A stretch of DNA of 64,000 bases from Paralichthys olivaceus. Lineage: Eukaryota > Chordata > Actinopteri > Pleuronectiformes > Paralichthyidae. How positions within the stretch are numbered: position 1 is the first letter of the stretch; each line of letters opens with the position of its first letter. A model generated the notes under the pieces. It did not search any database and was not told where the DNA came from. It worked only from the letters and a program-made list of their open reading frames with translations. Of this stretch, positions 46,901 through 52,900 are shown in pieces. A program made the position numbers and the translations under genes. The DNA lies in NCBI RefSeq assembly GCF_024713975.1, contig NC_091098.1:11380816-11444815 (forward strand), read 5' to 3'.

Positions 46901-49900
46901 CTAAGTAACTATTAACAGCAGGGTAGTATCTATTTTGTACTAGTTAGAAAACTGTATAAAGGACACAATGCAAATAGGCCTAACACTGTATGGTCTGGAC
47001 AACTGTTGAAGTGGACAGAGAATTCAAATAACAGTATAGTTATATCAGGAATCGCAGTTTCTCTTGAATTAATGGACAATTTGAATTTTTTTTTGTTGTT
47101 CTTTTGCTAATCCTCCTAATTACATGGACTTTGTACCTTGACTACACATAACCTAGACTGTATAATTCCATTGTCACCCCACACTTTTTGGTGTGCTGGT
47201 TCCATTCATCAAATGCTTTACATAAATGCAAATCTATAAATATACCTTTAGTTTTACCAGCTGACTCCCTTCCTTTCTGGGCTGTGAGTTGATCAAGGTT
47301 CTCTGTAACCTCCTTATAGCTCCTGTAAGCCACGGATAGCATGACAGCGGGTGGTGCTAAGAGGGTTATTTGAAGGTAATCTTGATGCTGCAGAGGCCGC
47401 ACTATGAGAATAGTGTGGTTCTTGACGGCTACGAATGTCGCAGTGGAGGATTACACATAAAAGAGCTTGGTGTTTGAAAGTGGCCCATTTACTGGTACAA
47501 GAGGTGATTGTTTGGATTCTCTCCAAGATAGAAACAACATGTTACAACACATATTAATTTGGATTTACAGTCAGTCAGGTAAATTCAATGTTTATCACTA
47601 GAGTAACCTCCAACAGTTAGTGTAGAAATGTAAAGGAAATAACTACTGAAATCCTATAATCACAAACTTTATTTCTAATAGCAATATAGAAATCAAATAA
47701 TAAAAGACCACAAATTAAATTAAGATCACAACAATTGAAGTAACAAAATTATGGAATGAAATAACTACAAACTCTTAAATTGATGTTTAATTCACATAAT
47801 AAATTTGTAAGATTAATTATTCCATTTGATATAAATTTGTAAATTTCAAGTTCTGAAGTACTAATACATGGTCACTAAAATGGTCAACAAAAGTCACAAA
47901 GGACCTTTCATTTACCACAGTGCTAATCTTTGCAATGTATACTGAAAGGCACTCATTGTGTTAAGGGACCCACTAAGTAACCTTAAAATCCTAAGCAACT
48001 GAAGACCTAGATTCATTGCATTTGAGTCAAGCAACAAAGTGTACTGAATTATACCACTTCATTAAACCATCACCATTTCATCTCTAGCAGCTGTAGAAGC
48101 TCTGAGTTGAATTGTGAAGTGATTGCTTGTCTTCTGAGGTGGTGATGTCAACATGAAATGCAATGTCAATAATTCAAGCCAAGTTATGTCCTTCATTCAA
48201 CAGAAAATCAAAATAATAATGATAAACAATGCACTTGGCATTTGCAATGGCAAATCTTCAGCTTTAAAAACTTGCTTTCCCATAGGCAGTGTACCATGGC
48301 AATACACACTCTATCTTTTCATCCACTTAGGGCAAATGCAAATCAAAAAGTCAGCACAGCTAAGTGGATGCTCTTTGCTTCTCTGTAGTTAAGTCCCTTA
48401 TGTTGTCTAAACGCGAATACACCAGCTTAGTTTCCTCCCTCAGCATACTCCACCGTGCAGATTTTCCTGGTCCTGTTCTTCTCTCTTTGGTTGTACAGGT
48501 GAACTGGGCTTTTAGTCAAGCCCAAATCCATAGATGTTAAATATCAAAAAGCTCTGCTTCCTTTTCTTTCCAAAAAGCAAAGCTTCGGTCAATGTATCTG
48601 ATGATCTCTTCATTGCTAAACTCTTTTAGCTCGTAGATAAGTTTAATTGAGTCTCCATTACTTTCATCTCTTGGTGGAGGTTTATCAACATGAGGTTCCT
48701 CTAGGATTTTAACAGTAACAGGTGGAATATCTTTCACTGGATTTAGTCCTGAGCTTTCTGTTGTGTGCTGTGTTGTCTCAGCTTTTGCTGTTGTGTCAGC
48801 TTGTTGTAGAGTTTCAGTTGTCGAGCTCTGTATATGATCCTTGAGTGAACTATTTCCATTAGAAACCACCGTCTCACTTGATGACCTCTGCTCAATGGAT
48901 TTCACATCCCCCTGAGCATTGTCCTCCATTGAGTTTCTCAGGGTTCTCTGCTCTACACACTGGCCATTATTAGATACACCATCATGGGTTCCAGCAGGTG
49001 ATGAGGGTAACCCATCTGATGGGTTGTGTGGGGAAGGCAGCACAGGTGGAGTAGACTGTGTGTTTGGAAGCAGAGGTGCAGCATGGGTTGGTGGCGGAGG
49101 AGGTGGAGGATGTGAAGGTGGGGGAGGAAGTGATTCCTGGGTTGCCATGGGCATTTCAGGAGACATACAATGTAGTGAAGCTGTCATTACACCTCCCCCC
49201 TCATCACAGTCTCCAAAATACTTCAACTTTATGTCTTCAAAGCCGTCGGGCCAGTCTCGTTTCCCTCTCTCAATTTCTTCCATGACCTCCTTGTGAAACT
49301 GCCTTATGAACTCCCATTTCTGGCTACCAAGACGGTCAAACATCTCATAGCACAAAAGGTGGCGGAATTTCCGCTCACTGCGAGACATGTTCATCTCCAG
49401 CAACTGGAAGTATCCCAGCATGAAAAGGTCGAGGGTTAGACTTTCATAACTCACAGGTGACCCATTGATGTGCGGCAAGAAGTGCTCTGGCCAGTAGATC
49501 ATCTGGGCACGACTCAGTCTGCGGATCTGGCGTGTGGGCACTTGACTCATGATTGTCCTCCAGTGGCCGATCAGATTCCCTACTACCTGCTTTGACTTCA
49601 TGAAAAGGAGGAGCTTGTCATCTTCACTCTCTATCTCCGTACCAATCTGTTCACTGAATTGGTTGTAGTCCTCCCAGTCCACATCTAAATGATTTCCTCT
49701 CCTGCTTCCATATTTAGTCCGATAAGACTCAGAGATTGTGTACTTTCGCCAGTGTTCAAGGAACAAGAATACGATCCTCTCTTTCCTCATTTCAATGCAT
49801 TCCTGGACATAGCTTAGATCTGTCTGCACCTCTAAGCTTCTTGTTAGTTGGCCATTATTTAAAATAGGGTCTGCAGACAGAACCTGATTGAACTGTTCAA

Positions 49901-52900
49901 TGTTAGTTGGAGCCATTATCTCATGAGGGGCATATGTCTTTGGGGCATGAGATGCAATGATAACGGGTTCTTCAACCATTGGTAAAACTGATTCCTCCAC
50001 TGAGGGTAAATGTCCATTGCTATTAGATTCAAGGACTGTAGCAGAAGAACAAGGGACAGCTTCCTGAATTGTCTCTGGAACATGATTAGACTCACTTACC
50101 AAAGGGAGGGATCTCTTACGTTTGTAAACCCTATTTGCTTTGTTGTCTAAAGACTGTGACTGATTCTGAATTTCATAATTGGCCTTGAGGTTCTTCACTG
50201 AAACCCCACACTGCTTTATCTCATTCTCCACATCCTCTCTCGTGGAGAAGGACTGAGACCGTCCAATAAATCCAGTACCAGCTGATCCTGCTGTTTCAGA
50301 CTGACCTGTGCTCACACTCCTTGCCTCTTCCTGAGAATATACTGGGCATACAAGATCCAAGATATCTATCTCTTTTCCCCCCAGTGTGGCGAGAAGAATG
50401 GCCATACTCTTGAGTAGTGTGGAAATCTTACTGCACCAGGCTGGAAGATCTTCAGCCTGGCCATGCACCTGCTTTGGATTAACTGAGAAGTGCCCTTGAT
50501 GGAGGGCAGCAGAAACTGGTAGGAGCTGGTGCAGCTCATGCTCTAATTCTTCCAGCTCCCTCTCGACTTCTGACACCTTGTGCATGACCTGGAGGTTCTC
50601 AATTTGCTTCTCAATACGATTAAGGTCAGCCTCTGTCATCAGTTCCCCAAATGGGCCCAAAATGGCATTGTGGGTGGGGGAGTAGTGCCATTCCTGAGGC
50701 TGGTAGTGTCCACTTGCCGCAAACTAAATCAGAGGTCGAAGGAGACCAGAAGACAAGAAACAGGGGAAGGAGGGAAGGTTTCTTCAGCTCTAACTTCCTG
50801 GTGTGAATACATGATTCAGTGCAAGTCCAACCTCACACACAGGTTTTACATGGATTTAGTGGTGCAATGGCACTGCCTCATTAAAAAGCATAAATCTTTT
50901 TACATTTATTTTGAGTGAAAGAACATTAAAAGCTAATATTTGAAATTATATTTAAAATATATCAATAGTGATATGTAGAATTTTGCTGTAAGTTACAAGA
51001 TTACATTATGTATGTTTAGGCATTTGACACTGAGACATTCTAACATCTTTTTTTGCTTAATCATCTAGTTTTCTCCTAATTTTCTTTCTTTTCTTGTCAG
51101 TTTTTGATGTTTAAAGAGTGACTTTGAACACACTGAGAATTTTGTTTCTACTGATATCAAGCAGGTGAAAATTTCATCTTGCTGCATGTTCAGTCTGCAA
51201 CCCAAACACGATGTAACACTGCAGTGTGACATCACTGTCGGGTACTGGCACAAGTGCAGCTGACAGACACACTTCAGTCCACACCCAACAGTGACAGGAA
51301 AATACTGTCGCTAAAGGTGCAAGAGTTGAAACTGTCAACCGAGAGAGGTCAATGCAACAAAATGTTTTTCTGAATAATAGACCTGGTGAAGAATTACCAA
51401 GGTCATGATCTGCTTTCCAAAAAGTTTATACAAATAATGTTCATTATAAATTCAGTATTTTACTACAAATGTAGTTAGTAAAATTCTCATTATTCTTTCT
51501 GTATTGTTATTATTACTGGTTGACCTGTAGTGTGAATGGGTCCGGCATCACACCACTGAATCGGCATGTAACAACTTGAAGCCGCAAAACTCCCATCAAA
51601 CACCAGCCCACACTGTGTCCGTACGCCAAGTGTGTTAATGATGTGATGGGCACTGTAGCCAAGTATTCAGTTCACTGCAATCCAAACATCTGTTCAATAA
51701 ATATCAAAAGTAAACATGCAAAAAAAAGTTAAAAGAAATTGGGAGATGCCAGATTATCAAAATTAGAACGACATTTCAGTATTTGACTGAAACCATGGGC
51801 AGCTTAGGCTCTGGCAATTTGTTTTGATGATGAGAATAAGGAAGGTGGTGGCTATTACCTGCAAAAATGCTCAAAAAGCCATAATTCAACAATCTCCCTC
51901 AGCTGTCATGCATTGGTACCAAATGAACATTTAAGCTTTTTGACTTCACCCTCAAATAACCGACTGACTAACAAGTCAAATAAACATACGTCATGCATGA
52001 ATATATTAAAAACATATTAATACAACCTTGTTGTTCAAAACCACAAAAGACCACACTCAAATTCAAATGCCTGTTATCCCCTTTGTGGTGGTAATTATTT
52101 GAAACTAACTGAAGCCATCAAGATTACAATGCATTTAAAATCTACAGGACCACAAATGGGGATAGCTAAGACACAACAAAACATCTGGACCTTAGTGAAG
52201 CCTTGCAGCTCTATGCCTACCTTGCGCTTGTGCTCGTCCTCCTCTTGCATCTTGACCTGAAGCTTCCGCACCATCACCTGCCTCTTCCATTCAGGTATTG
52301 CTTTTCCCTGTTCATCATGAGTAGGCACTAGCGCCTCCACGTCAGCAAGGCTGGTCTTCCGTCCCGACTCTGCTCCTGCAGTGCCACCACCACCGCCACT
52401 GTTCCCATTGATCACAGAGTTAGAGGGCAGTTGCTCGTAGCTCACAGAGGTCGATATGGTTCTGCCAGATCCAGAGCCTGTAGGACTAGGGCTGGGACTT
52501 GGGGTGGTGGGTGGGGAGGTGACAGGCGTATTGGATAGTGGTGGAGATGATGGTTTGGCTGGTGGGCTAGATTTGCGTGTCTCTGGTGGAGATGTAGCGT
52601 TACCCTGGAGGAAAATAAAAACAAAGATACACAGAGGAGCATGGGTCACAAGACAACTGATTACTGGATTTATTTTCTTTAACAACCAGTCTTCTTTACA
52701 TCCTAGGACAAATCAAGCCAGAATACATTACTAAGCATTGCTGGGCACATTAAATGTGTCACATGATGTAGAGGTTTCTTTAGATCACGATACATGAACC
52801 AGTTTCCTGAGAGAGCTGATCCATCTTTTAATCATCCTTTACTGAGCTGAAGGTTAATGCTACATTTTGTGGAGACCATGCTGACCATGTTGACTCTTCA

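What the first reader, a model, noticed from the sequence alone, without database searches (positions are those of the whole stretch)
48537..52604. espn seems to carry two mutually exclusive C-termini, one of them ESPNL-like
The intron after the espin actin-bundling exon (52221-52604) contains a 2.19-kb open exon in the same strand and phase. It is preceded by a long pyrimidine tract and TTTAG. Its first residues ([20 protein letters not shown] plus a coiled coil) resemble what follows the same bundling module in the paralogue ESPNL. Splicing to it would give an espin with a 728-residue tail instead of the classical tail ending in APWQR. This suggests the espin/ESPNL ancestor had both endings in one gene and that mammals divided them between two genes. 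That history is inference.
Basis: partly seen in the sequence, partly recalled or inferred. Interest (0 to 1): 0.9.

Follow-up and report, generated by a model that had tools for sequence, protein, structure and literature searches.

The report
Espin's hidden second, ESPNL-like ending
The hearing gene espin holds, in a fish and in database gene models from skates to humans, a conserved second ending of the kind found in its sister gene ESPNL, and splicing to it would likely replace the actin-bundling end with a non-bundling one.

Summary
The 728-codon frame (48537-50723, minus) opens at a phase-0 acceptor inside the espn intron after the 52221 donor; the classical end lies downstream (44126-42371). 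Its product is homologous to the ESPNL C-terminal domain: an ESPN-tail profile finds 12 of 12 ESPNL tails (E<=8e-101) and 0 of 240 shuffles. Of nine blocks compared, the best conserved (residues 11-27) precedes the first ATG, so a free-standing gene is unlikely. Database models join the exons in 115 of the 120 best proteins listed, from cartilaginous fish to mammals, human 'espin isoform X4' included. So mammals did not divide the endings: ESPN kept both. The fish itself has two espnl loci with the tail at the same phase-0 junction and no classical end found in 29 kb around each. ESPN and ESPNL tails split at 100/100, so the tail predates their separation. Likely mechanism (untested): an alternative last exon that removes the second half of the actin-bundling module. 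A human retina long-read table (PMC11450717) lists a 6.3-kb ESPN transcript with an alternative poly(A) site; its link to the tail is my inference.

The parts
52221..52604 (-). espn exon with the first half of the actin-bundling module (..[25 protein letters not shown]), shared by both endings; phase-0 donor AAG|GTAGGC at its end
   Evidence: homologous exons with phase-0 donors in both espnl loci
48537..50723 (-). alternative last exon, coding part: 728-codon ESPNL-type tail with stop TAA
50724..50780 (-). acceptor TAG (50726-50724) with upstream pyrimidine-rich tract; the TAG is also an in-frame stop, so without splicing the frame can be entered only at an internal ATG
50640..50690 (-). tail residues 11-27 of P0001 (WHYS..GPFGEL), best conserved of nine blocks compared, lying before the first in-frame ATG (residue 28)
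50523..50633 (-). predicted long helix (coiled coil), tail residues 30-66 of P0001
50172..50198 (-). VKNLKANYE, at the place of the VxxLxxxFE motif of ESPNL
   Evidence: motif from PMC13364712
49209..49505 (-). conserved helical core, tail residues 406-504, the confident part of both models; no solved-structure match found
48546..48614 (-). predicted C-terminal helix, with most of the conserved end [18 protein letters not shown]
47668..47673 (-). AATAAA 0.86 kb after the tail stop: candidate poly(A) signal (one of 11 AATAAA/ATTAAA hexamers between 48536 and 42000; an ATTAAA at 47791 comes first)
44047..44126 (-). classical end, first exon ([26 protein letters not shown]..)
43085..43096 (-). 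classical end, 12-base microexon (GGAACAAAAAAG) that fits the frame of its neighbours (read by eye)
42371..42518 (-). classical end, last coding exon (..[27 protein letters not shown])
53243..53388 (-). espn WH2 exon
   Evidence: PF02205, E 5.1e-6

Best explanation
The frame at 48537-50723 encodes an ESPNL-type C-terminal domain and is most likely an alternative last exon of espn, whose use would replace the second half of the actin-bundling module with this tail. The joined protein would keep the upstream espin parts and the first half of the bundling module but lose the classical end. [quoted passage not shown] the choice of last exon would then set how much of the espin made in a cell can bundle. 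Shown: frame, splice signals and phases, homology, age relative to the ESPN/ESPNL split, presence in vertebrate ESPN models. Inferred: use in RNA of this fish, the loss of bundling, and any role in protrusion length or in the retina.
For: Splice signals and phase. 115 of the 120 proteins listed (610 hits in all) run straight from the EWKRQV exon into the tail by a pattern check, in teleosts, gar, bowfin, bichir, skate, frogs, reptiles and mammals; the chimaera model is direct too but missed by the pattern. Tail residues 11-27, before the first ATG, are the best conserved of nine blocks (mean frequency of the commonest residue 0.89; coiled coil 0.80, core 0.79). In the same genome two espnl loci (C16, C3) have the tail at the same phase-0 junction. 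Tree: 19 ESPN rows against 12 ESPNL rows, 100/100, each with fish and mammals; grouping fish ESPN with fish ESPNL is rejected, p-AU 1.7e-7. No ATG first exon with a consensus phase-0 donor in the 1497-base intron. [quoted passage not shown] the module is thought to hold two filament-binding sites and the jerker frameshift replaces its second half (PMC3953818, passages); retina long-read table with a 6,326-base ESPN form, relative abundance 1.00, with an alternative poly(A) site (PMC11450717, section 3.6).
Against: No RNA read from any tissue was seen here. 95 of the 120 proteins listed are predicted or annotated from the first ATG of the tail onward, this fish's own entry (P0002) among them. 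8 of the 120 reach the acceptor through a short leader unlike espn (such as Thunnus MG-, Semicossyphus MKVESSVL-, Merluccius), so an internal first exon may exist in some fish. 7 of the 120 models, gar and bowfin among them, chain both endings in one protein, and 15 of 120 lack the usual tail end. The retina table does not show the exon and calls the form 'extra intron, exon elongation, alternative poly(A) site', so its link to the tail is inference. Loss of bundling is untested; the tail has an actin-motif candidate of its own.
Confidence: 0.72

Rival explanations
1. The frame is a separate nested gene with its own promoter, as many databases list it ('espin-like protein', about 700 aa).
For: 95 of 120 listed proteins start at the tail's first ATG; 8 of 120 have a non-espn leader joined at the same acceptor (P0004, P0018, P0070, P0104, P0118, P0120 and two more); 13 listed proteins begin MASGHYQ and one MTSGHYQ, with a methionine near the acceptor.
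Against: The block before the first ATG is the best conserved of nine; that ATG is methionine in only 81% of 47 ESPN/ESPNL rows; in the two espnl loci a homologous tail exon follows the common exon at the same phase; espin models with the junction run from skate to human; no candidate first exon of the tested kind in this intron.
Confidence: 0.07
2. The tail isoform is real but still crosslinks actin, with another geometry: the first half of the bundling module, the extra site of large espins, and the tail's own motif act together.
For: The tail has V..L...YE in 232 of 238 ESPN rows at the place of ESPNL's V..L...FE; an ESPNL SFM peptide binds filaments with Kd about 6 uM, and the screen accepts Tyr for Phe (PMC13364712, passages); espin 2B with the jerker frameshift is said to keep residual crosslinking (PMC3953818, passage).
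Against: Full-length ESPNL, with the same kind of tail and the common region, did not bundle in COS7 cells (PMC4773517); ESPN has Tyr, not Phe, at position 8 of the motif.
Confidence: 0.25
3. A later insertion: an espnl tail was copied into the espn intron in fish.
For: None found beyond the similarity itself.
Against: ESPN tails of fish, skate, frog and mammals form one group apart from ESPNL at 100/100, and joining fish ESPN with fish ESPNL is rejected at p-AU 1.7e-7.
Confidence: 0.02

Closest known systems
ESPNL (espin-like) C-terminal domain
   Same: Homologous along the tail, same phase-0 junction after the common actin-binding exon, same final helix, same motif position.
   Different: In ESPNL it is the only ending found; in ESPN it sits in an intron beside the classical bundling end. 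Motif position 8 is Phe in 118 of 120 ESPNL rows and Tyr in most ESPN rows.
Classical espin isoforms 1-4
   Same: Same gene, same upstream exons.
   Different: A review (PMC10046292) and a research paper (PMC3953818; [quoted passage not shown] the tail form would change the C-terminus instead.
Predicted espin isoforms X1-X6 in NCBI, such as human espin isoform X4 (P0239)
   Same: Many already contain this tail; the sequence itself is in public databases.
   Different: Automatic models; no paper describing them was found (open-licence PMC only; most listed papers were not opened).
Jerker mutant espin
   Same: Second half of the actin-bundling module replaced (PMC3953818, passage).
   Different: A disease frameshift giving a nucleolar localization sequence, not a conserved domain.

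Membership tests
ESPN gene | WH2 domain | tested here: met
   PF02205 in 53242-53389, E 5.1e-6
ESPN gene | complete actin-bundling module with classical end | tested here: met
   52221-52604 and the classical exons
ESPN gene | N-terminal ankyrin repeats of the long isoform | not tested
   not looked for in this genome; no such exon was recognised in the window, and close models such as Pleuronectes P0122 carry ankyrin families
ESPN gene | neighbourhood of human ESPN (PLEKHG5; recalled) | tested here: inconclusive
   a RhoGEF stretch at 32354-32668, minus strand, fits PLEKHG5 but was not identified further
ESPNL C-terminal domain | profile similarity | tested here: met
ESPNL C-terminal domain | joined in phase 0 to the common actin-binding exon | tested here: met
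   splice sites in the window and in both espnl loci; use in RNA not tested
ESPNL C-terminal domain | actin-filament motif VxxLxxxFE | tested here: inconclusive
   VKNLKANYE in the window: Tyr for Phe; binding not tested
ESPNL gene | lack of the classical bundling end | tested here: not met
   the window gene has it; so it is espn, not espnl
classical espin isoform | C-terminal actin-bundling module kept whole | tested here: not met
   the tail form would keep only its first half

The most novel reading that the evidence does not exclude
ESPN is a two-ended gene in all jawed vertebrates, humans included: alternative last exons switch it between an actin bundler and an ESPNL-type non-bundling espin, and in the human retina the tail form is the main or only ESPN product, so this exon is an unread part of a deafness and Usher-linked gene.
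Probability: 0.45. Interest if true: 0.85.

Novelty: new variant of a known kind. Interest (0 to 1): 0.68.

Why it matters
Espin is a human deafness gene, and the passages read here treat its C-terminal bundling module as common to every isoform. A second, ancient and intact C-terminus in the same gene would mean that one gene makes both a bundler and an ESPNL-like protein. It would also mean that mutants and antibodies aimed at the classical end may miss products, that the tail exon should be read in patients, and that many 'espin-like' fish genes of about 700 residues are pieces of espn rather than ESPNL.

Full report
What is there. The window is a stretch of a 588-Mb fish genome (G000:C6:11380816-11444815); the nearest full espin model is that of the flatfish Pleuronectes platessa (94% over the scored part). 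On the minus strand lies espn: WH2 exon 53388-53243, the exon 52604-52221 with the first half of the actin-bundling module, and, 8.1 kb further, the classical end 44126-44047, 43096-43085 and 42518-42371 (exact ends and the microexon were read by eye). Between them is the 728-codon frame 50723-48537. It opens exactly at TAG|TTT, in phase 0, as the upstream donor requires. An AATAAA lies 0.86 kb after its stop, one of 11 AATAAA/ATTAAA hexamers up to 42000. Because the exon ends in a stop, an mRNA that includes it cannot encode the classical end behind it: the two endings exclude each other.

It is coding, and joined to something upstream. One search found 555 related proteins (120 listed). Of these 120, 95 are predicted or annotated from the first ATG of the tail onward, as is this fish's own entry P0002. 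That start is probably wrong: in an alignment of 47 ESPN and ESPNL proteins, tail residues 11-27, which lie before that ATG, are the best conserved of nine blocks compared (mean frequency of the commonest residue 0.89, against 0.80 for the coiled coil and 0.79 for the core). The ATG itself is methionine in 81% of rows. The acceptor's TAG is an in-frame stop, so these residues can be translated only after splicing.

It is joined to espn in gene models across jawed vertebrates. One search covered a composite full-length query, scoring only the junction and tail, among proteins of roughly 830-2600 residues: 610 hits, 120 listed. A pattern check found the direct junction in 115 of 120. Of the five others, P0174 (chimaera) is direct but missed by the pattern, P0125 has 14 extra residues, and P0167, P0172 (sturgeon) and P0180 lack parts near the junction. 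Among the 115, P0227 has an odd junction segment. The list covers teleosts, gar, bowfin, bichir, skate, stingray, chimaera, frogs, tuatara, a lizard, snakes, crocodile, duck and 49 mammalian entries, human espin isoform X4 (P0239) among them. 105 of 120 end in the conserved tail end, 43 of the 49 mammalian entries included; seven of 120 (gar and bowfin among them) chain both endings in one protein, which I take for prediction artefacts. All are database models; that NCBI gives alternative isoforms mainly on RNA evidence is recalled, not tested.

It is the ESPNL tail. PMC4773517 (passages) prints mouse ESPNL peptides and names an ESPNL C-terminal domain. A search with those peptides returned mammalian ESPNL in all 120 places listed (504 hits at E<=10); none of the 120 shows MPAW or PWQR of the classical end. 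An HMM of 19 ESPN tails finds 12 of 12 ESPNL tails at E<=8e-101 and none of 240 shuffles. The fish itself has two espnl loci: C16:10740726-10742288 and C3:22082905-22085270. In both, the common exon ends in a phase-0 donor and the tail begins in phase 0; on C3 the tail is split in two exons and a BTB/BACK gene lies beside it (human ESPNL lies beside KLHL30, recalled). In about 29 kb around each locus no classical end was found (best E 0.24, overlapping the common exon), while the same gar query finds it in the window at E 9e-21 and 1e-9; a much diverged copy could still be missed.

History. A tree of 19 ESPN and 12 ESPNL tails splits them at 100/100, with fish and mammals on both sides; holding fish ESPN together with fish ESPNL is rejected (p-AU 1.7e-7). 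So the tail was present before the two genes separated, and mammals keep it in both. Against a tidy picture: the order inside the ESPN side does not follow the species tree, holding bony vertebrates together gives p-AU 0.0605, and the two fish ESPNL rows are long; the earlier tree with mammalian ESPNL only was undecided about the root. That the ancestor had the classical end too is inference from forked, called the Drosophila ortholog of espin in PMC4758956 (passage).

How it likely works. [quoted passage not shown] the jerker mutation replaces its second half (PMC3953818, passages). The tail exon would replace about the same half. [quoted passage not shown] I therefore predict that tail-form espin decorates filaments and can be carried by myosin III, when the ankyrin exons are included, without bundling, and that the choice of last exon tunes bundling. 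A complication: PMC13364712 (passages) reports an actin-filament motif VxxLxxxFE in ESPNL, Kd about 6 uM. The passages I saw do not print its place, but the pattern occurs once in human ESPNL isoform 2 (P0300), inside the tail. ESPN rows have V..L...YE there in 232 of 238 (P0167 has no match) and ESPNL rows V..L...FE in 118 of 120 (P0289 has no match). The paper's screen accepts Tyr for Phe, so the tail may bring its own filament site, and altered bundling rather than none remains possible.

A lead in humans. The retina long-read atlas PMC11450717 (section 3.6 read whole) lists an ESPN transcript of 6,326 bases, 'novel in catalog', relative abundance 1.00, 565 full-length reads, 'extra intron, exon elongation, alternative poly(A) site'. 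A 1339-residue tail form, as modelled in gorilla (P0238), needs about 4.0 kb of coding sequence and would fit; the table does not show the exon and another explanation of its length is possible, so this is inference.

Known or new. The sequence is in databases; the idea is not in the passages read. [quoted passage not shown] PMC6493769 (passages) speaks of a single zebrafish espin, places the module in exons 11 to 13, and amplified isoform 1 with a reverse primer that fits the classical end. Ten literature searches (open-licence PMC only) showed no paper on an ESPNL-type end of ESPN; most listed papers were not opened.

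Noticed in passing
G000 C16:10740726-10742288 (L009) and C3:22082905-22085270 (L010): This fish has two espnl loci; the tail is one exon on C16 and two exons on C3, an intron gain or loss between the copies.
   Followed up: partly
database proteins P0164, P0168, P0170: Synaphobranchus, Aldrovandia and Conger have an espn-type protein with a diverged junction (such as ..KRKLAARGYSQ); Aldrovandia also has the usual form (P0159), perhaps a kept duplicate of the teleost genome doubling.
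   Followed up: no
database proteins P0007, P0010, P0071, P0076 and others: 13 listed fish proteins begin MASGHYQ and one MTSGHYQ: a methionine stands at the second residue after the junction (compare P0134, ..KRKFMASGHYQ), which might allow an independent start there.
   Followed up: no
window 32354-32668, minus strand: RhoGEF-domain stretch (PF00621, E 2.2e-6), fitting a plekhg5 gene beside espn.
   Followed up: partly
window 57370-57423, minus strand: A 54-base AG/GT-flanked stretch between the proline-rich and WH2 exons reads in frame with both ([17 protein letters not shown]); duck and human espin models carry inserts at that place (GKGKALRQMKS in P0234, GKVRVLRHRKS in P0239), so it may be an optional small espn exon.
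   Followed up: no
window 24004-24507, plus strand: Arg/Tyr/Pro-rich frame resembling a YBX1-type protein (recalled resemblance; no Pfam hit).
   Followed up: no
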